Shown: piece by piece, positions 3,050 through 45,923 of the stretch | Position numbering within the stretch: position 1 is the stretch's first letter | How the letters are laid out: the number at the start of each line of letters is the position of its first letter | Assembly: GCA_017454485.1 (NCBI GenBank) | Contig: JAFTCX010000008.1 | Coordinates: 1-45,923 of the forward strand | DNA from: Clostridia bacterium | GTDB taxonomy: Bacteria; Bacillota; Clostridia; Oscillospirales; Acutalibacteraceae | Length of the DNA stretch: 45,923 nucleotides | Direction: 5' to 3' | The notes under the pieces: generated by a model | The model's database searches: none | What the model was told of the DNA's origin: nothing | The model's input: the letters and a program-made list of their open reading frames with translations, nothing else | Made by a program: the position numbers and the translations under genes

Positions 3050-3200
3050 TTTTTTGCGCAGCTTCGCTGCGCAAAAAAAGGCGGCGCGGGCGTCTCGCGC
3101 AATGCGCGAGACGAAGGCGCAACATTTTGCGCCTTTTCGCGCGGCATTCTGCCGCGCGATCCCGCCGCCGCCCGTCCGCGCACGGCGAACGCCGTGCGCG
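3050..3200. repeat. Five-hairpin element, copy A (variant arms)
   Basis: Five consecutive hairpins are present. H1 is 3050-3078 (core GCGCAGC/GCTGCGC). H2 is 3091-3113 (CGTCTCGCGC, loop AAT). H3 is 3114-3135 (AAGGCGCAA, loop CATT). H4 is 3138-3158 (CGCGCGGCA, loop TTC). H5 is 3177-3200 (CGCGCACGGCG, loop AA). An outer stem (3080-3090 with 3161-3169, with a 2-nt bulge) encloses H2-H4. H4 and H5 match the other copies in sequence. H2 and H3 do not, yet both are perfect stems in the same places. It begins two bases after the end of MITE-B. Confidence 0.8.
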
Positions 3201-18373: not shown

Positions 18374-18512
18374 CGCGCAGCGTTGCTGCGCGCACGGGGC
18401 GGCGGGACGAACCGTGCGTTGCACGGTTCGAAAACGAAGCGACGCTTCGTTTTCCGCGCGGCAAATGCCGCGCGGTCCCGCCGCCGGTCTGCGCACGGCG
18501 AACGCCGTGCGC
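18374..18512. repeat. Five-hairpin element, copy B
   Basis: H1 is 18374-18392, H2 18409-18429 (GAACCGTGC, loop GTT), H3 18431-18453 (AAAACGAAGCG), H4 18455-18474 (CGCGCGGCA) and H5 18491-18512 (GCGCACGGCG, loop AA). The outer stem GGCGGCGGGAC (18398-18408) pairs perfectly with GTCCCGCCGCC (18475-18485). The closing pair of this stem is C-G here, but T-A in copies C, D and E. Confidence 0.85.
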
Positions 18513-18560
18513 AAAGCGTCCCGGAACGCGCACACTGAAATCAAATCTTTTTTACGCAGA

Positions 18561-18695
18561 GTAAAGCCGAAGCCGAAAGGGCATGAAGCGCGAACTTTTC
18601 CCAGATCACACGGTTCCACGTCAACGTCCGGGCTCAGCGTTTTCTCTTTCGCAAGAGAAAGAGAAAGAATGGACCCGCCGGAGGCACCGTTCGGC
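18561..18695. repeat. Extension module following five-hairpin copy B
   Basis: About 135 bp match 22599-22747 downstream of copy C. Shared pieces include AAAGCCGAA, GGTTCCACGTCAAC and a CTCTTTC/GAAAGAG hairpin followed by AATGGACCCGCCGGAGG. The order relative to the five-hairpin element is the same in both copies, so element and extension travelled or were copied together. Confidence 0.7.
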
Positions 18696-18778
18696 TGAGA
18701 TAAAAGATAACGAACCACACAAACCGCCGCAAAAAAGCGTATCACGCACAAAAATGCGCTCCGCCTTTTTCCGGTTCC

Positions 18779-18811
18779 GAAAAAGGGTCACAACCGATCC
18801 CGGTGCGACCC
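18779..18811 (-). terminator. Rho-independent terminator of mgsA
   Basis: On the minus strand, GGGTCGCACCG pairs with CGGTTGTGACCC (a small mismatch inside), followed by TTTTTC. It starts seven bases after the mgsA stop. Confidence 0.75.
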
Positions 18812-18818
18812 TCTCGAT

Positions 18819-19223
18819 TCAGTTTTTCGGGTTCACAATGTCGCGCCAGTCGAGGTCGCCGCGCTCCAGCGCGTGAATGAGCGCTTCGGCCGTGGCGATA
18901 TTCGTTGCAACGGGAACATTGTGGACGTCGCACAGCCGCAGGAGGTTCGCCTCGTTCGGCTGGCCGGAATCCGGCTTGAGCGGATCGCGGAAAATCAACA
19001 CAAGGTCGATTTCGTTGCAGGCGATGCGAGAGGCGACTTGTTCTTCGCCGCCCTGCGCACCCGAAAGAAAGCTGGTGATGGAAAGTCCGGTCGCTTCACT
19101 GACAATTTTGCCGGTGGTGCCGGTGGCGCACAAATTGTGGCCGCTGAGGGTGCCGCAGTAGGCGATGCAAAACTGGACCATCAATTCCTTTCTTGCATCA
19201 TGGGCAATGAGTGCAATATTCAT
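18819..19223 (-). CDS. mgsA: Methylglyoxal synthase-family protein with altered active site
   Basis: The family converts dihydroxyacetone phosphate to methylglyoxal and phosphate. The 134-aa protein has the fold's hallmarks: MNIALIAHDARKELMVQF, the phosphate-binding ATGTTGKI, and LLRLCDVHNVPVATNIATAE. However, the catalytic region normally reading GGDQQ is GGEEQ, so the general-base Asp (D71 in E. coli) is Glu. The segment normally reading PHDPD is SGQPN, so the active-site His98 and Asp101 equivalents appear to be missing. Activity is therefore uncertain. The start at 19223 follows AAAGGAG. It lies after minD, as in other Clostridia, but has its own promoter and terminator. Confidence 0.85.
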   Translation of the reverse strand: MNIALIAHDARKELMVQFCIAYCGTLSGHNLCATGTTGKIVSEATGLSITSFLSGAQGGEEQVASRIACNEIDLVLIFRDPLKPDSGQPNEANLLRLCDVHNVPVATNIATAEALIHALERGDLDWRDIVNPKN

Positions 19224-19269
19224 TCGTTTTTCTCCTTTGGGACACCGAGTGTCCAAGTTCCTTTTTGTT

Positions 19270-19298
19270 ATCATAACAAATCTTTGACAAGAAAGCAA
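19270..19298 (-). promoter_or_regulatory. Sigma-A promoter of mgsA
   Basis: On the minus strand, TTGCTT (19298-19293) and TATGAT (19275-19270) have a 17-nt spacer. The leader contains a small perfect hairpin, GGACAC/GTGTCC, at 19239-19253 before the ribosome binding site. Confidence 0.65.
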
Positions 19299-19353
19299 GA
19301 CTAATAATAGAAAAAAAGCAAATTAAACAAAAAACTATTTTCTTTTTCGGTAT

Positions 19354-20073
19354 TTAGGAGAAAATCAAAGGAATATTTTCCCCCTCCAGCCGTCCGGCGA
19401 TGCTGCTCAGCGGCAAAAACGAGATCGCGTCCGGCGAAAAAAAGCCGGGTTTCATTGCCGCATAGCGCAAAGCGCGGTCCTCCGGCACAATGCCGATGAG
19501 CTGCACCTCGCTGCGGTCGATCACGTCGTCAATGTTCAGCAGCAGCCCGCGGCGGATGTCGCGCTTGACGGCGCGGTTGAGGATCAGACGGGTTTCCTTC
19601 ACGCCCTGCGACTCCATCTCCTGCGCGGTGCGGCAGGCCGAGCGCACCGACGTCGGGTCGGGCAAAGCCACAACGATGCCCGTTCTTGCCGCGGCGCACG
19701 CAAGCGAAAAGCCGGTACCGATGCCGGCGGGCGCGTCAAAAATCAAAACGTCAAACTGCTGTGCATAGCCGCGCATCATCTCGCGCACCTGTGCGGGTGT
19801 GAACGTGCCGTAATCGGTCGGGCACGGCAGCAGAGAGATCGCGCCGGCGTCGAGCAAAGCGTCGTTCAGCTCACAGTTTTTGTTCAGCACGTCGCCCCAG
19901 TCATAGACAACGCGGTCGGCAACGCCGAGCAGCAAGTCCGCGCAGCGCAGATCGTCAAAATCAACCAGCAGCACCCGTTTGCCCCGCCGCGCAAAAGCGA
20001 GCGCGAGCGCGAGTGCAAGCGTGGTTTTTCCAACGCCGCCTTTGCCGGACGCAACAACAATGCGTTTCGCCAT
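19354..20073 (-). CDS. minD: MinD-like ParA/MinD ATPase
   Basis: MinD ATPases place the division septum by membrane cycling with MinC. The 239-aa protein has the deviant Walker A KGGVGKTT at residues 11-18, VLLVDFDD, the MinD-type DRVVYDWGDVLNKNCELNDAL, FDAPAGIGTGF, and LIGIVPEDRALR. It is shorter than typical MinD (about 265 aa). Its end, SSIAGRLEGENIPLIF, lacks the basic amphipathic helix that normally anchors MinD in the membrane. No minC or minE is adjacent. The ATG at 20073 follows GGAGG; a GTG three codons upstream overlaps that site and is unlikely. The position between mrdA and mgsA is the usual one in Clostridia. Confidence 0.83.
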   Translation of the reverse strand: MAKRIVVASGKGGVGKTTLALALALAFARRGKRVLLVDFDDLRCADLLLGVADRVVYDWGDVLNKNCELNDALLDAGAISLLPCPTDYGTFTPAQVREMMRGYAQQFDVLIFDAPAGIGTGFSLACAAARTGIVVALPDPTSVRSACRTAQEMESQGVKETRLILNRAVKRDIRRGLLLNIDDVIDRSEVQLIGIVPEDRALRYAAMKPGFFSPDAISFLPLSSIAGRLEGENIPLIFS

Positions 20074-20099
20074 AAAGAGCACCTCCGATTCCCGGTTTA

Positions 20100-20260
20100 G
20101 TACCCGCTGATTAACTCGGTGCGTGAAGATTGGCGAGGAAATTTTTCGTCAGATGTAACAGAAATCGCGCAGCAAACCTGACGGTTTGCAAGAGATTTCT
20201 GTGCAAAATGACGGAAAATTTACCGTCAATGTTTGCGAATTCGAGTTAATCAGTGGGTAC
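20100..20260. mobile_element. 161-bp MITE (MITE-A), copy 2
   Basis: This is an inverted copy of 365-525, also exactly 161 bp, with ends GTACCC and GGGTAC. The outer 20 bases (AGTACCCGCTGATTAACTCG) match the reverse complement of the other end except at one position. The flanking TTTA at 20096-20099 and 20261-20264 is the target duplication. The second TTTA contains the TAA stop codon of mrdA (minus strand), so the insertion landed on the stop without changing the protein. It now separates mrdA from minD. Confidence 0.9.
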
Positions 20261-20261
20261 T

Positions 20262-22295
20262 TTACTTGAGCAGCACTTCGTCGGATTCCTCCGCCGAAGA
20301 AGCCGGTTTATGAGAGAAATAATATTCCATGATTTTTGAGGCTGCCGGTGCGGTGGAACCGCCGGAGCCTGCGCCTTCAATCACAACCGCGATGGCGATC
20401 TCCGGGTTTTCAAACGGCGCAAAGGTCATGATCAAGCCGTTGTAGGTATCCACTTTTGCCCCGCCGATCCATTTTTCGACCGTTGTTGTACCGGTCTTTG
20501 CGGCCACATCCACGGGCACCTTGGAAAAGTCCGCGTAGCTGTATTTGCCGACATAGAGCATACCGCGGTGGACAAGATCCCAGTTTTCCTCTTCAAAATC
20601 CGCGTGCGCAAGCACCTCGGTCTGCGATTGCAGATGCGTTTCGGAAAAATCGGCCGACATCACGGATTTCACCAGATGGGCGCGGTAGCGCACGCCGCGG
20701 TTGGCGATCATGGAAACATAGGAGCAAAGCTGAATGGGCGTAAACTGGTTGTCGCCGTGGCCGATGCCGGCCTGAATCGTCAGACCCGGCGTCCACAGCT
20801 CGCCGCGCGAGGTGCGGAACTGATAGGAGTCCACGGTGCCCTCGGCCTCCGCAAGCTCCACGCCGGTCTTTTCGCCGAGACCGAAGATCGTGAAATAGCG
20901 GTTGAGCTTTTCAATGCCGAGCAGACGCGCCGTTTCATAAAAGAAGATGTTGCAGCTATGATACAGCGCGTTGACGACGTTCTGTCCGCCGTGAAAGCCG
21001 GTGCAGCCGGGCTGGTAATCGGAAAAATAGCGGTATTTGCCGCCGCAGAAGATGTAGGTATCCTTCGTGATCACACCCTCCTGCAGACCCGCCATCGCCA
21101 CACAGGGCTTGATCGTGGAACCCGGCGTGTAGGTGCTGCGCAGCGCACGGTTCCAAAGCGGCTTTGCGCTCGAAAGGTTGAGCTTTGCGGAATTTTTGTT
21201 GTAGGTTTCCAGGTTGAACGTCGGATAGCTTGCGCAGGCCAGCACATCGTTGTTCTTGGTGTCCATCACAACAATGGCGCCGGCGCGCACATTGCCGCGC
21301 ACGGCCTGCTGTTCCAGAATCAGATCCTTCAATGCATCCTGCGTCACCTTTTGCAGATCGCGGTCGATCGTGAGGATCACGGTGTCGCCCTGCTGCGGAC
21401 GGACGGTATACGTTTCGCTCGTGTTGCCGTCGCGGTCCACGGTGATGACCTTTTCGCCCGCCGTGCCGCGCAGATAATCCTCCAGCGTATATTCCAGGCC
21501 GCTCTTGCCGATCAGGTCGTTTTTGCCGTAGCCTTCGTCCTTTTTCGCCTCATACTCCGAAGGGCTGATGGCGCCCACGATGCCGAGCAGATGCGGCGCG
21601 ATGGTGCCGTCCACATACTCGCGCTGCGCTTCGATCTGCACATCCACGCCCGGGAAAATGTCGCTGCGCTCCTTCACGGCGGCAACAAGCTCCTGCGGCA
21701 CGTCATGGGCGAACACATAGGGCGTTGCGGTGTTGAAGCCCTCCTTGTGCATGGAATAATAGACCGAGGCGATGTCGCGCGCGTCGGACAGACTGTAATT
21801 GCCGAGGTCATAGCGCTCCACCAGTGCGGCGAAGCAGTCCTGCGCCGTGGCGTAGGGGTTCATATGCAAAAAGGCCTTGCTTTTCAGATAGCTGACCTCG
21901 TTGTCCTTGTCTTTGAGGAACACGGGCGTGCCGTCGCTTTTGATGCGCAGCGGCAGATTGTCGGTCCAGTCGGCGTCACCGTAGGCGGAAAACAGGCGAA
22001 TGAGCGAGAGAATGATCTCATTGCGGCGCGCGCTTTCCTTTCCGGGCGGAAACAGGTTATAGTTGAACACGATTGTGCGCACCTGACGGTTTGTGACCAG
22101 CAGATTGCCGTTGCGGTCACGAATTTCTCCGCGCAGCGCCTCCACAGGCACCGTCACAGTCTGCGCAGCGGTCTGCCGCGCCTGTTTTGCCTGCACAACC
22201 TGCACATCATAAAGGCGCACAAGAAACACCGCGATCGCCAGGGCGATGAGCGCCATGACCGCAGAGGTTCTTTTCCGGTTATACGGTTTTCGCAT
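20262..22295 (-). CDS. mrdA: Penicillin-binding protein 2 (peptidoglycan transpeptidase)
   Basis: A class B PBP that cross-links peptidoglycan with the elongation machinery. The 677-aa protein has one N-terminal membrane segment (about residues 12-32), a dimerisation domain, and a transpeptidase domain with all three motifs. These are S393 in PGSTIKP, S447-C-N in YHSCNIFF and K600-T-G in AAKTGTTT. The start ATG at 22295 has only a weak GGTGAT upstream. It follows mreD in the shape operon, but a 616-bp repeat block with five-hairpin copy C separates them. Its stop coincides with a MITE target duplication. No rodA/ftsW partner is in the window. Confidence 0.93.
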   Translation of the reverse strand: MRKPYNRKRTSAVMALIALAIAVFLVRLYDVQVVQAKQARQTAAQTVTVPVEALRGEIRDRNGNLLVTNRQVRTIVFNYNLFPPGKESARRNEIILSLIRLFSAYGDADWTDNLPLRIKSDGTPVFLKDKDNEVSYLKSKAFLHMNPYATAQDCFAALVERYDLGNYSLSDARDIASVYYSMHKEGFNTATPYVFAHDVPQELVAAVKERSDIFPGVDVQIEAQREYVDGTIAPHLLGIVGAISPSEYEAKKDEGYGKNDLIGKSGLEYTLEDYLRGTAGEKVITVDRDGNTSETYTVRPQQGDTVILTIDRDLQKVTQDALKDLILEQQAVRGNVRAGAIVVMDTKNNDVLACASYPTFNLETYNKNSAKLNLSSAKPLWNRALRSTYTPGSTIKPCVAMAGLQEGVITKDTYIFCGGKYRYFSDYQPGCTGFHGGQNVVNALYHSCNIFFYETARLLGIEKLNRYFTIFGLGEKTGVELAEAEGTVDSYQFRTSRGELWTPGLTIQAGIGHGDNQFTPIQLCSYVSMIANRGVRYRAHLVKSVMSADFSETHLQSQTEVLAHADFEEENWDLVHRGMLYVGKYSYADFSKVPVDVAAKTGTTTVEKWIGGAKVDTYNGLIMTFAPFENPEIAIAVVIEGAGSGGSTAPAASKIMEYYFSHKPASSAEESDEVLLK

Positions 22296-22315
22296 GAAAT
22301 CACCAACTTTTTTTT

Positions 22316-22348
22316 GGAATGTGGAATTTGGAATGTGGAATTTGGAAT
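22316..22348. repeat. AATGTGG/AATTTGG heptamer array
   Basis: Four to five heptamers lie immediately upstream of the mrdA start region. Confidence 0.72.
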
Positions 22349-22412
22349 TGCGGTAGAGGGGGCGTAGGGAGAAATCCGTAGGAATTGCTTTTTCGTGTGC
22401 GCCTTCCTCTTT

Positions 22413-22554
22413 TGCGCGCAGCGACGCTGCGCGCACGGGGCGGCGGGATGAACCGTGCGACGCACGGTTCAAAAACGAAGCGATGCTTCGTTTTTCGTGC
22501 GGCAATCTGCCGCACGATCCCGCCGCCGGTCTGCGCACGGCGTTCGCCGTGCGC
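22413..22554. repeat. Five-hairpin element, copy C
   Basis: H1 is 22413-22435 (TGCGCGCAGCG), H2 22450-22470 (GAACCGTGCG), H3 22471-22495 (AAAAACGAAGC, loop GAT), H4 22496-22516 (CGTGCGGCA, loop ATC) and H5 22533-22554 (GCGCACGGCG, loop TT). The outer stem GGCGGCGGGAT (22439-22449) pairs with 22517-22527. In H4 the third base pair is T-A, where all other complete copies have C-G. Both arms changed together. Confidence 0.87.
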
Positions 22555-22598
22555 AAAACGTTCCAAAAAGCGCCTGCTGAAAAACGATTTTCCGCTGG

Positions 22599-22747
22599 GA
22601 AAAGCCGAAACATCAAGGGCATGTAACGCGAACGATTCCCATATCGTTCGGTTCCACGTCAACATCTCACAAAGCGACTTTCTCTTTCTTCGTCTATTCT
22701 TTCTCTTTCACAAGAGAAAGAGAAAGAATGGACCCGCCGGAGGCTCC
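22599..22747. repeat. Extension module following five-hairpin copy C
   Basis: This matches 18561-18695. It contains a 14-bp perfect stem, ATTCTTTCTCTTTC (22696-22709) against GAAAGAGAAAGAAT (22716-22729). The rest of the gap to mreD holds a divergent module ending CCCGCGACC (about 22800-22879) and ATTCCGC/ATTCCGA heptamers (about 22880-22911). Confidence 0.7.
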
Positions 22748-24296: not shown

Positions 24297-24383
24297 AAGA
24301 AAAACTCCTTGTGCAGGATTCTCCGTCTGCGTTTCGCAAACGGAGAACAATTCGGAATTCCGAATTCGGAATTCGGAATTGCG

Positions 24384-24493
24384 GTCGCGGGTTAAGTAGC
24401 TATAAAATGAGCGCTTTCTCCGCGACGAAAGGTGCGGCTTCGGTTGACAATCCGTAAATTTTATTTTTTTCAAGATAAGACAATGTTACATTT

Positions 24494-24519
<26 letters not shown>
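24384..24519 (-). repeat. AT-rich CCCGCGAC-ended element (element J), inverted copy
   Basis: Read on the minus strand it starts in a GGACGCC...GATGCGTC hairpin and continues with an AT-rich stretch (ATCTTGAAAAAAA). A conserved core follows (GGATTGTCA, then TTTCGTCGCGGAGAAAGCGCTC). It ends in AACCCGCGACC against an AATTCGG heptamer array. The copy at 32109-32242 matches it almost throughout. Confidence 0.75.
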
Positions 24520-24712
<193 letters not shown>

Positions 24713-24715
<3 letters not shown>

Positions 24716-24742
24716 CACAATGCGCATCAGCGCATTGTGAAT
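24713..24742. other. Hairpin overlapping the mreB stop codon
   Basis: ATTCACAATGCGC (24713-24725), loop ATCA, GCGCATTGTGAAT (24730-24742): a perfect 13-bp stem whose last base is the first plus-strand base of the mreB stop. No T-run follows. Confidence 0.7.
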
Positions 24743-25752
24743 CAAATCCGCTTTCCGACCTTTTCCAGACTGTCGGATTCCAGATAGATGCCCGCGCCGT
24801 CCGCAACGCAGTCCAGCGGCGCGTCGGCAACGATGACCGGCATGCCCGTCTCCTCGCGGATGCGTTTGTCCAGTCCGCGCAGCAGCGCACCGCCGCCGGT
24901 GAGGGTGATGCCGTGGTCGATGATGTCCGCCGAAAGCTCGGGCGGTGTTTTTTCCAGCGTGGCCTTGATCGCGTCGAGAATTTGCCGGATGGAATCGTCC
25001 AGCGCTTCGCGCACCTCTTCGCTGGTGAGCGTCACACTTTTCGGCAGGCCGTCGAGCAAATTGCGGCCCTTGACCTCCATCTTGCCCTCGCCTTCATACG
25101 GCACGGCGGAGCCGATCTTGATCTTGATCTCCTCGGCGGTACGTTCGCCGACGAGCAGGTTATACTTTTTCTTGACATACTGCACAATGGCGGCATCCAG
25201 CGTATCGCCCGCCACGCGCACCGAGCGCGAGGTGACGATATCGCCCAGCGCAATTACGGCAACCTCCGCCGTGCCGCCGCCGATGTCCACGACCATGGAC
25301 CCGATCGCTTCGCTCACAGGCAGTCCCGCGCCGATTGCGGCCGCCATCGGCTCTTCGATCAAACTGACATATTTTGCGCCGGCCTCCAGCGCAACGTCGT
25401 GCACGTTGCGGCGTTCGACCTCTGTGACGCCGGAGGGGATGCAGATGACGACCCGCGCCTTGGCAAACAGCGACGTGCCCATCGCTTTTTGAATGAACTT
25501 GCGCAGCATCTCGGCCGTGATGTCAAAATCGGCGATCACACCGTCGCGCAGCGGTCGCATGGCGGTGATGGAGCCGGGCGTGCGGCCGATCATCTCTTTT
25601 GCCTGGTTGCCCACGGCAACCACCTTTGCCGGTTTGCTGCTGACACTGATCGCGGCCACGGAGGGCTCGCGCATCACGATGCCCTTGCCCTTGACAAACA
25701 CGAGGGTGTTGGCGGTACCGAGATCGATGGCGATGTCTTGTGAAAATAACAT
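24742..25752 (-). CDS. mreB: Rod shape-determining protein MreB
   Basis: MreB is the actin-like filament that directs lateral wall synthesis. The 336-aa product has the phosphate-1 motif [20 protein letters not shown], the adenosine/phosphate-2 motif [18 protein letters not shown], and the C-terminal [17 protein letters not shown]. It also has the N-terminal hydrophobic MLFS typical of membrane-binding MreB. The start follows AAGGAGAACCGTT. It heads the leftward mreB-mreC-mreD-mrdA-minD cluster, with a clear promoter just upstream. Confidence 0.96.
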
Positions 25753-25812
25753 AACGGTTCTCCTTGCTGCGTTTCGCCGTGCGAAAACGCCGATGATGGT
25801 CGTTGATATTTT

Positions 25813-25841
25813 ATTATAGCGCATTGTGCAAAAAGATGCAA
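25813..25841 (-). promoter_or_regulatory. Sigma-A promoter of the mre operon
   Basis: On the minus strand, TTGCAT (25841-25836) and TATAAT (25818-25813) are 17 nt apart, about 60 bp before the mreB ATG. A heptamer array begins eight bases upstream of the -35 box. Confidence 0.78.
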
Positions 25842-25848
25842 GCCGGAA

Positions 25849-25903
25849 AATTTGGAATGTGGAATGTGGAATTTGGAATGTGGAATGTGGAATGTGGAAT
25901 TAA
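25849..25903. repeat. AATGTGG/AATTTGG heptamer array upstream of the mre promoter
   Basis: Seven to eight heptamers abut the -35 region of the mreB promoter. They are followed by a GGACGCC/GATGCGTC hairpin (about 25905-25929) and AATTCGG heptamers (about 25947-25978). Confidence 0.82.
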
Positions 25904-25946
25904 GGGACGCCGCCTGCGGCGATGCGTCGGATGCTCTAAAGCGCAT

Positions 25947-26374
<428 letters not shown>

Positions 26375-26479
26375 TTAATTCCACATTCCACATTCCAAAT
26401 TCCACATTCCAAATTATGCGCTCCGCGCATCCGCCGCAGCGCGGCGTTCAATTGCGCATTGCGAATTTCTAATTGCGCT

Positions 26480-28567
26480 TCACTCCGCGTCCTCAACAAA
26501 CCGCTGCGGGAGCGTCACAAACGTGTGGTAGCCGTTGCCGAAATAGCAAAACCGTACCCCGTCCTGCGTGCGCACCCAGGGGGATGCGTAGATCTGCTGG
26601 GCGATCGTCGCCTCGGCGTCGTTCAGCGCGGGCAGTGCGGCGGCGGCGGAGGGCGCAGTCGTCTGTGCCGAATCGCTCGGCGCGGTCACGTCCTGCGTCG
26701 CCGTCGGCGCATAGGGGTCAAAGCTGTCGGTCGCGTCCGTCGCGTCGGTCACATCGGCCGGCGGCGTGACGCTCAGGAGCGAGACGAGCTCTTCTTCGCT
26801 CGCGCCGGCAAAAATGCGGTACAGCAGCGACTGATACAGTTCATAATCGCCGCTGAACACATCGTCGCGCCGCAAAAACGCGCCCGACGCGGTGTCGATC
26901 GTTGTGCCGGAATAGGTGATCGTCGGCATCACAAAGCCGGCGGCGGAAACAGCTTCGCCTTCCGCTTCGGCCTCGGCGGTTTCGTCCGCCGTCTCCGTCT
27001 GCTGCGCCTTGCGTGCTTTGGCGGCGGCAGCGGCCTGATACTCGGTCAGCTCGTCCAAAATCGAAAGCGTGCCGTCCGCGTTGTAGGTCACGGTGGAGAC
27101 CATGTAGGTGTAGCTCGGCAGCATCCGCTTGTCATAATTGCGCTTGACAAAGGCGTTGTAGCTGTCGTTGGCCGTGGCCGCAAGGTCGTTATAGGATTTG
27201 AGCATCTGCGCATACAGCGCGTTGACCGTCTTTGCGGTCTCGTTCGTCGCGTCAGTGAAATAGGGATAGTCCAGAACGTAGTTGGCAACAACGGTTCTGT
27301 CGTCGGCCACCGCGGAAATCTCCTCGTGGCGCATCTCATAGTTCAGCATGGCCGTCTGCGAGGCGGCACGGCTGCCGTCTTCGCGGAACAGCGGTTCGGG
27401 CGAAAGCTCTGTGAGCGTCCAGCCGTTTTCTGCGGCGGCGTCGGCGTTGCGGCTGACAATGGCATAGACCACGTTGATGTCGCTCAGGTCGGCCAAAGCG
27501 ACATAATAGCTGCCGTCCTCGGTGTGCTGCGCCTTGGAGATGTGCAGATCGGGCGACGGGTCACCGGAAGGCGCCGCGTCGGCAAGGAAATAATAGGCGC
27601 CGTCATAGTAGTAATAGCGGCTGTTGTTGCCGCTGCCCGGCAGCGAAACGCCAAAGCGTTCGGCAAGGGCGTTGAGGTCTTTTTCATCAATGCGGTAATA
27701 GCTGAACGTGCCGCTCTCGTCCGCAAAGCGGTTCAGCGGATCGGGCGTTTCGGTCACCCGGGTCGGCTGGCCGAAGGAAGCGGCATAGAGGTTGTTCGTC
27801 TGATTGAGATCCAACAGCTCGAAGAACGCGCCCACGCCGAGCGTTTTCGGCGAAAAGGGCCGGTCATACAGCGGCGCATAGGCAGAAAGGAACGAGAGCA
27901 CCTCCTGCTTTTCCTCGTCGGTCAAAACGCTCAGCGACACCGGCTCTAAGCCGCTGTTGCTGCTGTCAAACAGCGTTGTGGTCAACCGCACGCCGAGCAG
28001 CGCCACCAGCGCGAGCAGACACACGCACACGATCGCCGTCAGTGCATGGCGGCTGCGGCGGGCTGCGGCGGTTTCGGCCGCACGACGCACAGGCATCGGC
28101 GCTCTGCCGGAGGAAACGTCAAGATACGGCTGCGGCACACGGCCGTCGGAAATGAACGGGCGGCGCAGCACAGCGTCGGTCGCGTCGGCCACTGCGGCCG
28201 TCTGCGGCGCGCTGTAGGAGGACACGTCCTCAAACGCATCGGACGCGGCGGTGTTCGGCTTGGCTGCAGCCGGTTCCGATGAAGCGTCCGCCGCAGGTTC
28301 ATTCGTTTCTGCCGCAAGAATCTCCGGTTCAAACGGCGCGTCCCCGTTCGTTTCGGAAAACGACGGTTCCTGCGCGGCGGCAGCGGCGTCGGATGCCGCT
28401 TTTTTGGCGTCCGCCTGCTCCAGCAGCTCGAGCAGCTCCTGCTCATGGGAGGGCAGCGTCACCTTGAAATTCTGCACGCCGAGCGCCCCGGCGTCCTTGT
28501 TTGTGCCGCAGCGCGGACACACGTTCACGCCCTCGTCCAGTTTTAATCCGCAATGTTTACAAAACAT
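26480..28567 (-). CDS. Zinc-ribbon, single-pass membrane protein of unknown function
   Basis: The 695-aa protein begins with a zinc ribbon (Cys 3, 6, 17 and 20, in FCKHCGLKL and NVCPRCGTNK). A low-complexity Ala/Glu/Ser-rich cytoplasmic linker runs to about residue 170. One membrane segment follows at about 174-194 (LTAIVCVCLLALVALLGVRL). The remaining 500 residues should be outside. They include a possible two-part domain ending in AEATIAQQIYASPWVRT and VRFCYFGNGYHTFVTLPQRF. A DVTDATDATDSFDP-type acidic linker precedes that end. Cytosolic zinc ribbon plus TM plus extracellular domain is a common plan in Clostridia, often unassigned. The start at 28567 is required to keep the ribbon. AGGGGA upstream is a plausible ribosome binding site. 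Function unknown. Confidence 0.75.
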   Translation of the reverse strand: MFCKHCGLKLDEGVNVCPRCGTNKDAGALGVQNFKVTLPSHEQELLELLEQADAKKAASDAAAAAQEPSFSETNGDAPFEPEILAAETNEPAADASSEPAAAKPNTAASDAFEDVSSYSAPQTAAVADATDAVLRRPFISDGRVPQPYLDVSSGRAPMPVRRAAETAAARRSRHALTAIVCVCLLALVALLGVRLTTTLFDSSNSGLEPVSLSVLTDEEKQEVLSFLSAYAPLYDRPFSPKTLGVGAFFELLDLNQTNNLYAASFGQPTRVTETPDPLNRFADESGTFSYYRIDEKDLNALAERFGVSLPGSGNNSRYYYYDGAYYFLADAAPSGDPSPDLHISKAQHTEDGSYYVALADLSDINVVYAIVSRNADAAAENGWTLTELSPEPLFREDGSRAASQTAMLNYEMRHEEISAVADDRTVVANYVLDYPYFTDATNETAKTVNALYAQMLKSYNDLAATANDSYNAFVKRNYDKRMLPSYTYMVSTVTYNADGTLSILDELTEYQAAAAAKARKAQQTETADETAEAEAEGEAVSAAGFVMPTITYSGTTIDTASGAFLRRDDVFSGDYELYQSLLYRIFAGASEEELVSLLSVTPPADVTDATDATDSFDPYAPTATQDVTAPSDSAQTTAPSAAAALPALNDAEATIAQQIYASPWVRTQDGVRFCYFGNGYHTFVTLPQRFVEDAE

Positions 28568-28612
28568 AATTGTCAGTCCCCTGTTATTTATTTGGAGTGA
28601 AATGCGCAAAGC

Positions 28613-28750
28613 GCAATTTGAAATTTGAAATTTGGAATTTGGAATTTGGAATTTGGAATTGAAGGGACGCCACGCTGCGCGTGATGCGTCAAAGCGCTTG
28701 CGCGCAATTCGCAATTCGCAATTCGCAATTCGCAATAAGAAATTCGCAAT
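28613..28750. repeat. Heptamer arrays and hairpin upstream of the zinc-ribbon gene
   Basis: AATTTGG/AATTTGA units occupy about 28613-28658. A GGACGCC/GATGCGTC hairpin follows (28664-28690), and then AATTCGC units (about 28705-28750). No gene was seen. Confidence 0.78.
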
Positions 28751-28850
28751 TGCGGTCGCGGGGGATTTTAATTCGCAATTTGCAATTCGCAATTCGCAAT
28801 TGCGGTCGCGGGGGATTTTAATTCGCAATTTGCAATTCGCAATTCGCAAT
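28751..28850. repeat. Perfect 50-bp tandem repeat, two units
   Basis: Unit 28751-28800 is repeated exactly at 28801-28850. Each unit joins TGCGGTCGCGGGGGATTTTA, the end of element J, to four AATTCGC/AATTTGC heptamers. A third partial start (TGCGGTCGCGGG) leads into the next element J. Confidence 0.92.
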
Positions 28851-28853
28851 TGC

Positions 28854-29016
28854 GGTCGCGGGTATAGTGAAAATAAAAAATCGGTTGTCTCCGCGACGAA
28901 AAGTGCGCTTTGGCTGATAATCCGAAAATCATATATTTTTTAATCATAGGCTATCATTGAATCTTTTTCGCATCTTTTCCGAACACATTTGACGCATCAC
29001 GCGCAGCGTGGCGTCC
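28854..29016 (-). repeat. Element J, inverted copy
   Basis: On the minus strand it runs from GGACGCCACGC to the end GGTATACCCGCGACC-like terminus. It shares the GCACTTTTCGTCGCGGAGA core, with an AT-rich part unlike the other copies. The 29017-29169 remainder is AATTCGC/AATTGCG and AATGTGG heptamers with another GACGCATC/GGCGTCC hairpin, ending at the stop of the HAD gene. Confidence 0.68.
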
Positions 29017-29169
29017 ATTCATTGCGAATTTCTCATTGCGCATTGCGAATTATGCGCCCAGCGCATCCGACGCATCGCGCTTTGTGCGGCGTCCCTTCAT
29101 TGCGAATTGCGAATTGCCAATTGCCAATTGCGAATGAATTCCACATTCCACATTCCAAATTCCAAATTA

Positions 29170-29853
29170 TTATTCTAAGTAGTCCAGCACCTCGTCGATG
29201 TGCTCGATCTCGGCAACGGTCGCCTTGCCCAGCCCCTTGCCCTTGAAATCGCCGTAGTTCATGCGGATAGCATACATCCCCGCGCCGAGCGCCCCGTCGA
29301 TGTCGTTGACCGGGTGGTCGCCCACAAACAGCACCTGCCGGTTTTCAACGCCCAGCCGCCGCGCGGCCTCGTCAAAGATGCGCCGGTCGGGCTTATACAC
29401 GCCGATGTCGCCGGAAACCACCACCACGTCAAACAGCGCGCGGATGCCGGCGGTGTCGAGCTTGATGTTTTGCAGCGAGGAAACGCCGTTGGTCACCGCG
29501 CCGAGCAAATAGCCGCGCCGCTTGAGCTCCTTGAGCGTTTCCACCGCCCCGGGCAGCAGCACGATGTATTTGCCGAAATCGAGGTTGAACGAATCGTAAA
29601 GCTCCTGCAGCGGCGGGTGGTTCTCCCAGCCCCACAGGGCGATCAGCTCCGGAAAATAGACCTCGCGGTCCTTGTAGCCGCCGTCCACGAGCGCTTCCAT
29701 CTCATCGAGCTTTTGCAGCCGCTCCTTTTCGCCGATGTTCGGGAAATAGCGGGTCAGAAACGCCTCGCAATACAGGCGGTACGCGCCCTTTCGGCTTTGC
29801 AGCGTATCGTCAAAATCAAAAAAGACGGCTTTCACATTCAGTGTTTGTTTCAT
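29170..29853 (-). CDS. HAD-superfamily hydrolase (YjjG-like)
   Basis: A 227-aa cytosolic phosphatase-type HAD protein. Motif I is VFFDFDDTLQS, motif II is the Thr/Asn in GAVTNGVSSLQ, motif III is the Lys in YKPDRRIFDEAARRLG, and motif IV is VGDHPVNDIDGALGAGM. Cap type and overall pattern resemble YjjG-like nucleotide 5'-phosphatases, but the substrate cannot be read from sequence. The start at 29853 follows AAAGGA and lies 38 bp inside the 3' end of ribF, so the genes overlap and are co-transcribed. The stop (TAA TAA) runs straight into an AATTTGG heptamer array. Confidence 0.85.
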   Translation of the reverse strand: MKQTLNVKAVFFDFDDTLQSRKGAYRLYCEAFLTRYFPNIGEKERLQKLDEMEALVDGGYKDREVYFPELIALWGWENHPPLQELYDSFNLDFGKYIVLLPGAVETLKELKRRGYLLGAVTNGVSSLQNIKLDTAGIRALFDVVVVSGDIGVYKPDRRIFDEAARRLGVENRQVLFVGDHPVNDIDGALGAGMYAIRMNYGDFKGKGLGKATVAEIEHIDEVLDYLE

Positions 29854-30733
29854 GGTCTGTCCTTTCAAAAACGTCCTTTGCCGCGCACACGTCGGCGGCA
29901 ATGCCCTCCTTCAGCGCCTGCAGCGTGCCGAAGTCTGTTTCATCGCGCAAAAACTGCAGCAGATGCACCTCAAGCGGCTGCCCGTACAGATCGCCGGAAA
30001 AGCCGAGAATGTGCGTTTCGCTGCGCAGATCGGGCGTGCCGATGGTCGGCCGCACCCCGATGTTCGTAACCGCAGGATACCACACGTGCTTTAAGCAGAC
30101 CTTTGAGGCATAAACGCCGCGCCGAAGCTGCACAAACTGCGGCGGAAAGCTCTGGTTCGCGGTCGGAAAGCCGAGCGTGCGTCCGCGCCGGTCGCCGCCG
30201 ATCACGTCAAACGCATAGGAAAACGGCCGGCCGAGCATCGCGTTTGCCGCAGGCAAGTCGCCCGCCTCCAGCAGCAGCCGGATGCGTGTGGACGACACCG
30301 GCGCGCCGTCAAACAAAACGTCGGGCGCGATGTGGACCTGCATACCGCATTGTTCGGCGAGCGTTTGCAGCGTTTGCACGGTGCCGACGGCCTGTTTGCC
30401 GAAGCGGTAGTTGTTGCCGCAGCACAGCGCCGCCGGAGAAAACGACTTTCGCAAAAAGTCCAAAAATGCCTGCGGCGAAAGCGCGCGCAGCGCCTCGAAG
30501 GAAACGATCTCCAGCGAAAAACCGAGCTGCCGCAGCCGGCGGCACTTTTCGTCCTGCGTCATCAGCAGCGGCGGGCAAACGCCGGTGAGCACCGCCTTCG
30601 GGTGCCGGTCAAACAGCAGCACCGCAGGCGTGCAGCGGTGTGCGTTCGCGCAGTCCAGCGCCGTTTGCAGCACCGCAAGATGGCCGCGGTGCAGGCCGTC
30701 AAAATTTCCGAGTGCAAGAACACGTTGAAGCAT
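29816..30733 (-). CDS. ribF: Bifunctional riboflavin kinase / FMN adenylyltransferase
   Basis: RibF makes FMN from riboflavin and FAD from FMN. The 305-aa protein has the N-terminal nucleotidyltransferase motif LALGNFDGLHRGHLAVL and the SSTRIRLLLEAGD signature. The C-terminal kinase domain contains GDRRGRTLGFPTAN and the acidic HILGFSGDLYGQ strand. The start ATG lacks a Shine-Dalgarno site: CTTCTCGCC and TTGAGGG-type repeats precede it directly. In Firmicutes ribF normally follows truB; here a repeat block and an opposite-strand gene lie between them. No FMN riboswitch was seen upstream. Confidence 0.93.
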   Translation of the reverse strand: MLQRVLALGNFDGLHRGHLAVLQTALDCANAHRCTPAVLLFDRHPKAVLTGVCPPLLMTQDEKCRRLRQLGFSLEIVSFEALRALSPQAFLDFLRKSFSPAALCCGNNYRFGKQAVGTVQTLQTLAEQCGMQVHIAPDVLFDGAPVSSTRIRLLLEAGDLPAANAMLGRPFSYAFDVIGGDRRGRTLGFPTANQSFPPQFVQLRRGVYASKVCLKHVWYPAVTNIGVRPTIGTPDLRSETHILGFSGDLYGQPLEVHLLQFLRDETDFGTLQALKEGIAADVCAAKDVFERTDHETNTECESRLF

Positions 30734-30885
30734 AGGCGAGAAGGGATTGAGGGGTTGAGGGGTTGAGGGGTTGAGGGATTGAGTGAAGAGTGAAGAGTGA
30801 AGAGTGGAGAGTGAAGAGTGGAGAGTGAAGAGTGTTGAAGGGATGCTGTTAGCTGTTAGCTGTTAGCTGTTAGCGGACAGAGAAG
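30734..30885. repeat. Octamer and heptamer arrays abutting the ribF start
   Basis: GGGGTTGA octamers (about 30742-30780), AGAGTGA/AGAGTGG heptamers (about 30784-30832) and GTTAGCT heptamers (about 30847-30875) follow in sequence. The array begins within a dozen bases of the ribF ATG, where the ribosome binding site should be. Confidence 0.82.
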
Positions 30886-30924
30886 CCCCGCCGTGGCTTT
30901 TTCAATTCGAAATTCGGAACGGAA

Positions 30925-31165
30925 GTCGCGGGTTTAAGCGTGCATGGAAAGAACGCGCGCGCCGCGACAATGCGTGCGGCGATACGGTACGATCGTTGAT
31001 GAGCTGCATTTGTTTTGAGGCGAACGCGGCGGAAAACGCGAACTGATCTTGCCCTCCCCTCTGGGGAGGGTGGCATCGCGCAGCGAACGCAGATGAAAAA
31101 CGCGCACGCAGATTGGCGCGATGACGGGTGAGGTCGTGAACCGCAAGGCGAACGTAAAAACGAAG
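30925..31165 (-). repeat. Long intergenic repeat (element I), inverted copy
   Basis: About 240 bp match 42990-43235 in reverse complement. Landmarks are CGATACGGTACGATCGTTGA, GCCCTCCCCTCTGGGGAGGG, GGCATCGCGCAGCGAACGCA and GACGGGTGAGGTCGTGAACC. Parts recur at 41069-41161 and 45759-45790. The 31166-31568 sequence beyond it has no gene on either strand that I trust. It holds a hairpin, TTTGTCGCG/CGCGACAAA, at about 31507-31531. Confidence 0.75.
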
Positions 31166-31568
31166 CATACACCGCAGCCGCACTTTTCAAAGAAAAGCAG
31201 AAAGCAACGAACCGTTGATGCCGCCGAAAAAGAGTGAAAACCGGGTCAGATCCGGCAAAATGAACCAGACTTTGCACACGAAAAAGGAGCCTCTCTCCCC
31301 TTGCGGCGCAAGGGAATTCGCAATCGCGGTCCGCGAAAAGTGCACGCATTTTTAGACCACAGCCGGACCCTTGCAGCACCGCAGTCGGTCAACGGGCGCA
31401 CACAATATAGAAAGAAGAAAGATAGAATGCATACGCAGCATTTTTGCGCGCACACGCGCGCGTGAGAGAGCAAGGAATAAAAATTAAAAATTATTAAGAT
31501 TTCCCCATTTGTCGCGTGTTTTGCGCGACAAAACGGCGTTTCCGGCCTTATTATGGAGGGATCTTTTT

Positions 31569-32075
31569 ATGGAATATCGTTGGTTCAAACTCAGCAGAGA
31601 GGTTTTCGACGACGGCGTGCTGTTTCACGACCTTGCGACGCTTGCCGTCTGGTGCTATCTCTGCGCCCATGCCGCATTCAAAGAACGCGCCGTTGTTTTT
31701 GCCGGAAAGCCGACCACCCTGCAGCCCGGACAGCTCATCACGGGGCGGCGGGAAATTGCGCGTGTCACCGGCGTTGACCCGTCCAAGGTGGAGCGTGTGC
31801 TGCATCTGTTTGAGGAAGCCGGACGCATTGAGCAGCGCACCTGCACGCAGAACCGGCTCATCACCGTCCACGACGGGCTGAACACCGGCATTCCGCAGCG
31901 CAAAAAGAGCAGTTCACCGCAAACGGAGCGCCGCAAACCGACCGTGCATACCGCGCACAAGACCGAGCAAAGCCGCCCGCGCGTGTTCTCGTCGGACGCA
32001 TCCTATGACATGCCCGATTATCTGCGGTGCGGGCTGGACAAGCTGCGTAATTATCAGCCGAAAAACGGAGATTAA
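31569..32075 (+). CDS. Replisome-organizer-like winged-helix protein
   Basis: This 168-aa protein starts with MEYRWFKLSREVFDDGVLF, resembling the N-terminal domain of phage replisome organizers and DnaD-like proteins. A winged-helix region follows (TLQPGQLITGRREIARVTGV, then DPSKVERVLHLFEEAGRIE, then RLITVHDG). The tail is basic and probably disordered (about residues 105-150). It ends with YDMPDYLRCGLDKLRNYQPK. A DNA-binding role is likely. Phage origin is possible, but no phage genes are nearby. The ATG at 31569 is eight bases after GGAGGG; upstream in-frame codons lie in a hairpin. It is alone on the plus strand inside the truB-ribF interval. Confidence 0.65.
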   Translation: MEYRWFKLSREVFDDGVLFHDLATLAVWCYLCAHAAFKERAVVFAGKPTTLQPGQLITGRREIARVTGVDPSKVERVLHLFEEAGRIEQRTCTQNRLITVHDGLNTGIPQRKKSSSPQTERRKPTVHTAHKTEQSRPRVFSSDASYDMPDYLRCGLDKLRNYQPKNGD

Positions 32076-32108
32076 TTCGGAATGCGGAATTCGGAATTCG
32101 GAATGAAG

Positions 32109-32242
32109 GGACGCCACGCTGCGCGTGATGCGTCAAATGTAACATTGTCTTATCTTGAAAAAACAAAATTTACGGATTGTCAGCCGAAGTGCACTTTTCG
32201 CCGCGGAGAAAGCGCTCGTTTCATAACTACTAAACCCGCGAC
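32109..32242 (+). repeat. Element J, direct copy
   Basis: It begins with GGACGCCACGCTGCGCGTGA and passes through CAAATGTAACATTGTCTTA, GGATTGTCA and TTTTCGCCGCGGAGAAAGCG. It ends at AACCCGCGAC before AATTCCG heptamers. It is nearly identical to 24384-24519 in reverse complement. AATTCGG heptamers (about 32075-32103) precede it. Confidence 0.78.
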
Positions 32243-32263
32243 TTTAATTCCGAATTCCGAATT

Positions 32264-32279
32264 ATGCGCGCAAGCGCAT
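32264..32279. other. Hairpin touching the truB stop codon
   Basis: ATGCGC (32264-32269), loop GCAA, GCGCAT (32274-32279). The last base is the first plus-strand base of the truB stop. Confidence 0.5.
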
Positions 32280-33163
32280 TACTTGCTCATGATCTTCTTT
32301 GGCAGCAGCTCCTGTGCCGCTTCGCCAACGCCGAGGAACGCCCCCTGCGGGGAAAAAACGCTGTAAAGCGCCGCGTCCGTCAGGCCGCCGAGCCTTGAAA
32401 GATCGAGCGCGCCGCCGTTGGAAAAGCGCACCGCCTGTTTATCGCTGACCGTGAGTGCCGGAAAGCCCAGCAGCCGCTCGATCGGCAAAACCGCCGTCGC
32501 AATCGTGCCGTTTTGCGCCATCGCTTCCAGTGCCGGAAAATCAAAGCTTTGCGCAAGCGTCAGCCCGTGCGCCGCCGTTCTGCAAAGCGCTGTCATGACC
32601 GCGCCGCAGCCGAGCGCTTCGCCGAGATCGGAGATCAGCGAACGGATATACGTCCCTGCCGAGCAGGTCACGTCAATGGTGTAGGTATGCGCGGCGTCGT
32701 CCGCCGCAGTGAGCGCAAGGCGGCTGATGGTCACCTTTCGCGGCTGACGTTCCACTTCCACGCCCTGCCGCGCAAGCGCATACAGGCGCACGCCGTCCTT
32801 TTGCAGCGCCGAATACATCGGCGGCACCTGCAAGCTATCGCCGCGAAAAACGTCCAGCGCCGCTTCCACAGCAGAGGCGTCACACGTCACGGGGCGCGTT
32901 TGCAGCGTTGTTCCCGTGATGTCCAGCGTGTCGGTCGTCTCGCCCAGACGAAACACCGCGCGATAGGATTTTTCGTGGGAGGGAATCAGTTCAATAAAGC
33001 GCGTTGCCGCGCCGAGCGCAACGGTCAGCACCCCGGTCGCCATCGGGTCCAGCGTGCCGGTGTGGCCGCTCTTTTTTGCGCCGGTCAGCCGGCGCACCTT
33101 TGCAGCCGCAACGAAGGAGGTGAGCCCTTCCGGCTTGTTTAAGCATAGAAATCCGTGTAACAT
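32279..33163 (-). CDS. truB: tRNA pseudouridine(55) synthase
   Basis: TruB converts U55 to pseudouridine in the T-loop of tRNAs. The 294-aa enzyme starts with MLHGFLCLNKPEGLTS and has the catalytic-Asp motif KSGHTGTLDPMATGVL. Later motifs are KSYRAVFRLGETTDTLDITG and CSAGTYIRSLISDLGEALGCG. A PUA-like end follows (LSDLSRLGG-type segment LDLSRLGGLTD). The start is fixed by homology, yet the bases before it (CTCTCCTTCCTTCT) are pyrimidine-rich and provide no Shine-Dalgarno site. It is preceded by a 360-bp repeat block that splits it from nrnA. Confidence 0.94.
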   Translation of the reverse strand: MLHGFLCLNKPEGLTSFVAAAKVRRLTGAKKSGHTGTLDPMATGVLTVALGAATRFIELIPSHEKSYRAVFRLGETTDTLDITGTTLQTRPVTCDASAVEAALDVFRGDSLQVPPMYSALQKDGVRLYALARQGVEVERQPRKVTISRLALTAADDAAHTYTIDVTCSAGTYIRSLISDLGEALGCGAVMTALCRTAAHGLTLAQSFDFPALEAMAQNGTIATAVLPIERLLGFPALTVSDKQAVRFSNGGALDLSRLGGLTDAALYSVFSPQGAFLGVGEAAQELLPKKIMSK

Positions 33164-33207
33164 AGAAGGAAGGAGAGAAAATAATAATTGTTCGGACGGA
33201 AAAATGA

Positions 33208-33505
33208 ATTCGGAATTTGGAATGTGGAATTTGGAATGTGGAATGATTGGACGCCGCGCTGCGCGCGATGCGTCGGATGCGCTAAAGCGCATAATTCGGA
33301 ATTCGGAATTCGGAATGAAGGGACGCCGCGCTGCGCGCGATGCGTCAAAGCGCTTGCGCGCAATTCGCAATGAGAAATTCGCAATTCGCAATGAACAGGG
33401 AAGGCTTTCCCCATTCCAAATTCCACTCTTCACTCTTCACTCTTCACTCTCCACTCGTCCCTCAATCCCTCAATTCCACATTCCAAATTCCACATTCCAA
33501 ATTCA
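33208..33505. repeat. Repeat block between nrnA and truB
   Basis: Heptamers of several families (AATGTGG, AATTCGG, AATTCGC, CACTCTT, ATTCCAC) alternate with two GGACGCCGCGC/GCGATGCGTC hairpins (about 33248-33273 and 33317-33342) and a GGGAAGGCTTTCCCC palindrome (about 33398-33412). The part from 33317 to about 33430 is repeated in inverted orientation at 34857-35006, so the nrnA-rbfA pair sits between inverted repeats. Confidence 0.8.
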
Positions 33506-33528
33506 ACTGATTCGCCCTGCGAATCAGT
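33506..33528. other. Hairpin overlapping the nrnA stop codon
   Basis: ACTGATTCGC (33506-33515), loop CCT, GCGAATCAGT (33519-33528). The stop codon and preceding Asp codon are in one arm of the perfect 10-bp stem. Confidence 0.68.
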
Positions 33529-34826: not shown

Positions 34827-34856
34827 ATGTTTACCTCCGTGGGTTGCGAGAGAGTG

Positions 34857-41172: not shown

Positions 41173-41315
41173 TGCGCACGGCTTTCGCCGTGCGCAGACC
41201 GGCGGCGGGATCGCGCGGCAAATTGCCGCGCGAAAAACGAAGCGCCGCTTCGTTTTTGAACCGTGCGCCGCACGGTTCATCCCGCCGCCGCGTGCGCGCA
41301 GCGAAGCTGCGCGCA
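41173..41315. repeat. Five-hairpin element, copy D (inverted)
   Basis: On the plus strand the order is H5 41173-41196, H4 41212-41232, H3 41233-41257, H2 41258-41278 and H1 41293-41315. All stems are perfect over 10-12 bp. The outer stem GGCGGCGGGAT (41201-41211) pairs with 41279-41289. This is the only copy facing left. The 41316-41418 remainder is ATTACGC/ATTGCAC heptamers (about 41366-41414) ending at the phosphatase stop. Confidence 0.87.
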
Positions 41316-42740: not shown

Positions 42741-42882
42741 GCGCACAGCTTCGCTGCGCGCACGCGGCGGCGGGATGAACCGTGCTGCAGCACGGTTCAA
42801 AAACGAAGCGGCGCTTCGTTTTTCGCGCGGCAATCTGCCGCGCGATCCCGCCGCCGGACCGCGCACGGCGAACGCTGCGCGC
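42741..42882. repeat. Five-hairpin element, copy E (H1 and H5 degraded)
   Basis: H2 (42777-42798, perfect GAACCGTGCTG palindrome), H3 (42799-42823), H4 (42824-42844) and the outer stem (42766-42776 with 42845-42855) are intact. H1 (42741-42761) and H5 (42861-42882) have unpaired positions. The closed core is thus preserved while the outer two hairpins decay. Confidence 0.85.
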
Positions 42883-45790: not shown

Positions 45791-45830
45791 GGCCATACTA
45801 TCAACCGAAAAGTGCGCGTTTCACCCTTTT

Positions 45831-45923
45831 GCGCGCAGCGTTGCTGCGCGCACGGGGGCGGCGGAACGAACCGTGCTGCAGCACGGTTCAAAAACGAAGC
45901 GCTGCTTCGTTTTTCGCGCGGCA
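45831..45923. repeat. Five-hairpin element, copy F (cut by the window end)
   Basis: H1 (45831-45851), H2 (45868-45889), H3 (45890-45914) and the left arm of H4 (45915-45923) are present. The left outer arm reads GGCGGCGGAAC (45857-45867), one base different from the other copies; the matching right arm lies beyond the window. Confidence 0.82.

What the first reader, a model, noticed from the sequence alone, without database searches (positions are those of the whole stretch)
18374..22554. A recurrent five-hairpin element with compensatory base changes (six copies)
Copies at 3050-3200, 18374-18512, 22413-22554, 41173-41315 (inverted), 42741-42882 and 45831-45923 (cut) share one architecture: hairpin H1, then an 11-bp GC-rich outer stem enclosing H2-H3-H4, then H5. 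Paired positions change together. The outer-stem closing pair is C-G at 18408/18475 but T-A in copies C, D and E. H4's third pair is T-A in copy C and C-G elsewhere. Nearly all substitutions are in loops or are compensated. This implies selection on a folded RNA or cruciform DNA, or copying by a hairpin-recognising enzyme (REP/BIME-RAYT systems are the known analogue). I know of no named family with this layout.
Basis: partly seen in the sequence, partly recalled or inferred. Interest (0 to 1): 0.85.

Follow-up and report, generated by a model that had tools for sequence, protein, structure and literature searches.

The report
Nested four-way hairpin DNA repeats
A small clade of rumen bacteria carries dozens of near-perfect five-hairpin repeats between its genes; their matched base changes are real, but they look more like the work of DNA copying that folds back on itself than of an RNA with a job.

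Summary
All six copies are there (one disrupted, one cut by the contig end): H1, an outer stem enclosing H2-H3-H4 at a mostly gap-free four-way junction, H5. Across 41 copies 97.3% of pair cells pair; 21 pairs and 63 cells change on both sides, 0/500 shuffles. Cores occur in dozens in three sister species, sporadically elsewhere in the genus. No Rfam match.

The inference 'therefore a selected RNA' is weakened. Core stems are 98.7% Watson-Crick; G-T and A-C oppositions are equally rare (8, 6). Between orthologs of two species, 14 of 26 stem-pair changes are compensated (unmatched controls 9 of 110), and 8 of 36 changed equal-length loops are exact reverse complements (permutation mean 1.4). 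Compensation plus loop inversion is a published footprint of template switching in DNA replication. No RAYT/REP link was found. Cores favour convergent gene gaps and turn over: copy C has no core in the matching gaps of three relatives.

Best reading: a MITE-like DNA repeat whose palindromes are re-templated at DNA level; how it spreads is unknown. New variant of a known kind, moderately interesting.

The parts
3050..3200 (+). Copy A, a diverged member: H1 3050-3078, outer stem 3080-3090/3161-3169 with a bulge, H2 3091-3113, H3 3114-3135, H4 3137-3159, H5 3177-3200
   Evidence: fold (H1 read from it), other positions, CM hit 3045-3216
18374..18513 (+). Copy B: H1 18374-18392, outer stem 18398-18408/18475-18485, H2 18409-18429, H3 18430-18454, H4 18455-18474, H5 18490-18513
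   Evidence: intact core at the orthologous site G019:C42:12746-12833
22413..22555 (+). Copy C: H1 22413-22435, outer stem 22439-22449/22517-22527, H2 22450-22470, H3 22471-22495, H4 22496-22516, H5 22532-22555; no core in the matching gaps of G019, G004 and G020
41173..41315 (-). Copy D (inverted): H5 41173-41196, outer stem 41200-41211/41279-41290, H4 41212-41232, H3 41233-41257, H2 41258-41278, H1 41293-41315
   Evidence: intact core at the orthologous site G019:C56:5777-5864
42741..42880 (+). Copy E: H1 42741-42761, outer stem 42765-42776/42845-42856, H2 42777-42798, H3 42799-42823, H4 42824-42844, H5 42861-42880
   Evidence: counterpart G019:C56:4245-4332, whose core differs by two compensated pairs plus loops
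45830..45923 (+). Copy F, cut by the contig end: H1 45830-45852, outer stem 5' arm 45857-45867, H2 45868-45889, H3 45890-45914, start of H4 45915-45923

Best explanation
It is a family of non-coding, MITE-like DNA repeats made of nested palindromes: two flanking hairpins and a cloverleaf of three hairpins on a GC-rich stem. The strand probably folds when single-stranded, as on a replication-fork template. The polymerase then switches template across the hairpin and copies one arm from the other. One such event can rewrite both sides of a stem together (compensated pairs) or flip the loop, so stems stay near-perfectly Watson-Crick while sequence drifts. Copies are also gained and lost by an unidentified route, and persist where they do not disturb promoters. 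Shown: architecture, covariation, strand symmetry of mismatches, an excess of loop inversions between orthologs, turnover of copies, enrichment in convergent gaps. Inferred: template switching as the agent, folding in vivo, and the absence of a dedicated function.
For: Covariation: 21 pairs and 63 cells with both sides changed, against shuffled means of 5.9 and 13.8, 0/500. Core of 40 pairs: 1568 Watson-Crick, 8 G-T, 6 A-C, 7 other; all 60 pairs: 2314, 22, 30, 36. Ortholog stems, 66 element hairpins aligned without length change: 14 compensated and 12 one-sided changes (4 G-T, 4 A-C, 4 other) in 648 pairs; 67 other hairpins: 9 compensated, 97 one-sided, 4 double non-paired in 594 (Fisher on 14:12 and 9:97, P 1e-6). 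Ortholog loops: 8 of 36 changed equal-length loops are exact inversions, permuted mean 1.4, P 8e-5; controls 0 of 8. In the strict set 7 of 31, with 0 exact reversals and 2 exact complements. Published: template switching in rRNA genes leaves multiple compensatory changes and loop inversions (PMC8794818, passages). Turnover: copy C has no core in the matching gaps of G019, G004 and G020.
Against: Of the 12 element hairpins with compensated changes, 10 have only one such pair, and in the rRNA study single compensatory changes, alone or with a loop inversion, were not enriched (table). The inversion signal rests on 8 events, two of them AAA/TTT, which are also exact complements; more changed loops lie nearer the complement than the direct loop too (13 against 9). 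Paralog loops show no excess of reverse-complement partners over position shuffles. The controls are whatever other hairpins lay in the stretches, many probably inside genes, and are not matched. Template switching does not obviously keep junction geometry or the conserved letters (outer stem GCGRRAC, H4 CGCGCRGC), which suggest selection or a binding partner. No clean insertion with a target duplication was found. Gene conversion between copies could mimic some compensated changes. All genomes are drafts; an assembly artefact at palindromes is not excluded.
Confidence: 0.45

Rival explanations
1. The folded form is selected as DNA: a cruciform or single-strand cloverleaf bound by a junction- or hairpin-recognising protein (nucleoid, topoisomerase, replication or repair).
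For: Strand-symmetric mismatches; junction closing pairs G-C/A-T/C-G in 45 of 62 zero-gap cores, counting either orientation; constant outer stem and H4; the site of G019:C11:44268 also holds a core in G004; most compensated changes are single pairs.
Against: Many matches only in one three-species clade; individual copies are missing at orthologous sites; no partner identified.
Confidence: 0.25
2. It is a transcribed 3'-end RNA element (mRNA stabiliser or transcription barrier) and the covariation reflects selection on RNA.
For: 38 of 86 cores lie between convergent genes, against 50 of 343 background gaps, and only 7 of 86 in divergent gaps; folding energies of -104 to -149 kcal/mol in 41 copies.
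Against: G-U is no commoner than A-C; orientation against gene direction 11, with it 18; in many copies a T-run lies 5' of H1 and an A-run 3' of H5, the reverse of a terminator. Convergent bias also follows if insertions near promoters are removed.
Confidence: 0.15
3. It is a REP/BIME- or REPIN-like element moved by a RAYT or other hairpin-recognising Y1 transposase.
For: Palindromes between genes in dozens of copies; a weak Y1_Tnp protein in the window's genome (G000:C51:6786-7088).
Against: Y1_Tnp matches in 21 of 34 genomes, 18 of them without the high-copy family; nearest pieces of the repeat about 6.7 kb from the G000 gene and about 6.8 kb from the G019 one; no GTAG-type tag seen by eye beside the hairpins; size and nesting unlike 20-40 bp REPs.
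Confidence: 0.1

Closest known systems
Bacterial MITEs and small mobile repeats (ERIC/RU, RUP, Correia type; recalled, RU types also in the listing)
   Same: 100-200 bp, non-coding, between genes, palindromic, multi-copy, lineage-restricted, present at some orthologous sites and missing at others
   Different: five hairpins with a nested four-way junction; no terminal repeat or target duplication demonstrated here
bcr1 repeat of the Bacillus cereus group (recalled; PMC2267715 passages list a 167-nt family Bcr1)
   Same: about 150 nt, structured; title of the cited original says it shows mobile-element characteristics
   Different: another lineage and another fold as recalled; no sequence comparison made here
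REP/BIME/REPIN with RAYT
   Same: dispersed extragenic palindromes
   Different: REPs are 20-40 bp with GTAG or CGTC tags (PMC3733652: abstract opening, passages); no tag seen by eye and no flanking RAYT found here
Template-switch evolution of hairpins in rRNA genes (PMC8794818, passages)
   Same: compensatory pairs and loop inversions as footprints
   Different: shown there for rRNA genes, with single compensations not enriched; here in a dispersed repeat, mostly single compensations

Membership tests
REP/BIME with RAYT | 20-40 bp palindrome with a GTAG or CGTC tag | tested here: not met
   about 140 nt in five hairpins; no such tag seen beside H1 or H5 in alignment A1, by eye only
REP/BIME with RAYT | a RAYT gene flanked by the repeat | tested here: not met
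   G000:C51 gene: no core on the contig, a fragment about 6.7 kb off at the contig start; G019:C12 gene: nearest core about 6.8 kb off. Other Y1 genes of G019 and G004 not examined one by one
MITE | short non-coding multicopy repeat with presence/absence between relatives | tested here: met
   copy C has no core in the matching gaps of three relatives; other cases
MITE | terminal inverted repeats and target-site duplication | tested here: inconclusive
   30 of 41 folds have 4 or more outermost pairs, but flank complementarity has median z 0.5 with 6 of 93 above 3; no duplication resolved
Rfam RNA family | covariance-model match | tested here: not met
   0 gathering hits in the window; for 22300-22700 at E up to 1 one hit, mir-1282, E 0.47, far below its gathering score
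Intrinsic terminator | GC hairpin followed by a T-run | tested here: not met
   read: in many copies the T-run precedes H1 and the A-run follows H5, so neither strand has hairpin then T-run there; no terminator scan was run
Template-switch footprint | loop inversions between relatives | tested here: met
   8 of 36 changed equal-length ortholog loops, P 8e-5; not seen as an excess among paralogs
Template-switch footprint | several neighbouring compensatory changes in one step | tested here: inconclusive
   14 compensated pairs in 12 hairpins, 10 of them with one pair only

The most novel reading that the evidence does not exclude
The cloverleaf is the active form of a new mobile element: it moves as a folded single strand recognised at its four-way junction by an unidentified enzyme, and each round of hairpin processing re-templates stems and flips loops independently.
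Probability: 0.12. Interest if true: 0.85.

Novelty: new variant of a known kind. Interest (0 to 1): 0.52.

Why it matters
Covariation is often taken as proof of a functional RNA. Here a repeat with near-ideal covariation carries DNA-level signatures (strand-symmetric mismatches, loop inversion), so it is a natural test case for how template switching could imitate selection on RNA. The nested four-way junction in dozens of copies also offers natural substrates for asking how replication and junction-processing enzymes treat multi-hairpin DNA.

Tried and rejected
RNA-level selection as the main cause: G-T and A-C oppositions equally rare, no clear orientation bias. RAYT mobilisation. Phage or plasmid origin: no match of copy C in phages or plasmids and none of one main-family pattern in viral contigs. 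An outermost sixth stem or long terminal repeat for all copies: not supported by shuffles. An excess of reverse-complement loops among paralogs: first looked strong, not significant against position-specific shuffles, dropped. A first count of 84 compensated to 10 one-sided ortholog changes was inflated by register shifts and by requiring paired stems in the second species; replaced by 14 to 12 against controls 9 to 97. In some searches whole contigs C90, C31, C48 and C13 were labelled element, so a few non-element hairpins are in the element set; the strict label left one inverted main-family hairpin (C90) among the 'other' 13 changed loops. Core orientation was meaningless (the outer stem is a palindrome) and was redone. 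The wide searches with R1 and R2 scored 9 and 14 candidates in nearly all the genomes I can see, and G009, with 2 matches, shows none, so their negatives are weak.
Full report
What is there. The window is one whole contig (C56) of a 2.42 Mb, 90-contig genome. The six copies fold as described: H1; an outer stem of about 11 bp; H2, H3 and H4 adjacent inside it; H5. In B, C, D and E the four helices meet with no unpaired base, and the finder sees no such cloverleaf in 20 shuffles of the window. Copy A has a bulged outer stem and other H2/H3 sequences, copy E has imperfect H1 and H5, and copy F is cut by the contig end.

How many and where. A DNA search finds the main family in the window's genome and in G019 and G004. 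Of 59 genomes searched by DNA, own included, 5 had any match and 3 had the family. A covariance model from 41 copies (R1) matches 8 of 34 genomes of the genus, with 75, 76 and 82 matches in G000, G019 and G004; a broader model (R2) matches 12 of 34. Matches count both strands and at most 85 candidates per genome were scored, so these are not copy numbers. The sequence-blind finder gives 28, 38 and 31 cores in 787 kb, 1.20 Mb and 142 kb of the three genomes, in stretches partly (G004: nearly all) chosen around hits. NusA, matched in 33 of 34 genomes, is 98% identical between G000 and G019, 91% to G004 and at most 76% to the others, apart from a short 83% fragment in G016, so the high-copy genomes look like one clade (no tree was built). 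Beyond the genus, R1 matched 2 of 295 order genomes, own included, and R2 only the own one of 200 family genomes; both are weak negatives. Thirteen contigs of G000 have a match within about 260 bases of an end.

Covariation. On the alignment of 41 copies (14 from G000, 13 from G019, 14 from G004; shorter pieces left out), 97.3% of cells pair, 21 of 60 pairs change on both sides and 63 cells do so, against shuffled means of 5.9 and 13.8; no shuffle of 500 reaches them and slid registers fall to 7-17 cells. On a wider alignment with diverged members, fitted to the model and with both strands of most elements as rows, all 59 pairs covary. Both tests share the caveat of relatedness, and the second leans towards its own structure.

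Is it RNA? Selection on an RNA should tolerate G-U more than A-C. In the 40 core pairs I count 1568 Watson-Crick, 8 G-T, 6 A-C and 7 other; in all 60 pairs 2314, 22, 30 and 36. In codirectional gaps the element lies with the genes 18 times, against them 11 times, and 12 could not be oriented. In many copies T-runs precede H1 and A-runs follow H5, the reverse of an intrinsic terminator. Convergent gaps hold 38 of 86 cores against 50 of 343 background gaps of 150 bp or more, Fisher P 2e-8; divergent gaps hold 7 of 86. Genes came from a home-made caller, the background only from stretches of 16 kb or more, 4 of 90 cores lacked a neighbour and one core lay inside a called gene. Selection against insertion near promoters would give the same bias.

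DNA-level footprints. I aligned orthologous stretches of G000 and G019 (414 kb kept, mean identity 88.6%) and compared hairpins. Where the aligned block keeps its length (66 element hairpins, 28 skipped), 648 stem pairs show 14 compensated and 12 one-sided changes (4 G-T, 4 A-C, 4 other); 67 other hairpins (10 skipped), unmatched and many probably inside genes, show 9 compensated, 97 one-sided and 4 double non-paired changes in 594 pairs (P 1e-6). Of the 12 element hairpins with compensation, 10 have a single compensated pair. Among element loops of equal length that differ, 8 of 36 are exact reverse complements, against a permuted mean of 1.4 (P 8e-5); none of 8 control loops is. In the strict set 7 of 31 are inverted, 0 exactly reversed and 2 exactly complemented (the two AAA/TTT cases); 19 lie closer to the inverted than to the direct loop and 7 the other way; for reversal the split is 3 and 12, for complement 13 and 9. 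Hairpins flip independently: at G000:C10 against G019:C54, H1 and H5 are inverted and H4 is not. Monttinen and Loytynoja attribute loop inversions and multiple compensatory changes in rRNA genes to template switching; in their table single compensatory changes are not enriched (PMC8794818, passages). Among paralogs the inversion signal is not significant.

Turnover. Flank mapping finds cores at the orthologous sites of copies B and D, and alignment shows copy E's counterpart. The G019 gap that matches copy A's holds a core of different sequence (G019:C6:124166-124291). Copy C has no core in the syntenic gaps of G019, G004 or G020, so it was probably gained in this lineage, inside a composite repeat region without clean borders; a decayed remnant would escape the finder. 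Conversely the site of a core at G019:C11:44268 also holds a core in G004, while G000 keeps a 25-nt gap there and no core is seen in the matching G001 and G020 stretches. No target duplication could be read for this repeat.

What it is not. No Rfam family; no match of copy C in phages or plasmids and none of one main-family pattern in viral contigs. Y1 transposase matches occur in 21 of 34 genomes of the genus. The weak one in G000 has no core on its contig, only a fragment about 6.7 kb away at the contig start, and the similar G019 gene has its nearest core about 6.8 kb away. Five literature searches listed no element of this layout; titles, abstract openings and passages of three papers are all that I saw.

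Remaining strangeness. Template switching explains perfect stems and flipped loops. It does not explain why the junction stays closed without spare bases, why its closing pairs are G-C, A-T and C-G in 45 of 62 zero-gap cores, or why the outer stem and H4 stay so constant (56 zero-gap cores that could be oriented by those same closing pairs, the others dropped). On rechecking, the point that most compensations are single pairs made me lower the main reading from 0.5 to 0.45 and raise selection on a DNA fold from 0.2 to 0.25.

Noticed in passing
20095-20265 and 360-530: A second repeat of about 170 nt, ends GTACCCGCTGATTAACTC / GAGTTAATCAGTGGGTAC at 20095, MITE-like: the G019 site lacks it and the flanks read as a TTTA duplication. 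A relative of it sits at the 5' edge of H1 of copy F's counterpart in G019.
   Followed up: partly
24300-35050: Many tracts of a 7-nt unit (AATTCCG, AATTTGG and variants), several beside a GACGC..GCGTC hairpin, in both orientations.
   Followed up: no
L073:6786-7088 (G000:C51): A 170-aa weak Y1_Tnp (RAYT-like) protein; similar weak matches in several species of the genus.
   Followed up: partly
L092, L100 (G002), L095, L102 (G009), L093 (G020), L094 (G025), L119 (G293): One to three cloverleaves each, with quite different stem sequences, in other genomes; whether these are homologs or independent look-alikes is open.
   Followed up: partly
42890-43220 and 3' flanks of other main-family copies: The repeat often sits in larger shared stretches (CCGAAACATCAAGGGCATGTAACGCGAAC... 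or GCGGTTCACGACCTCACCCG...), seen beside several copies.
   Followed up: no
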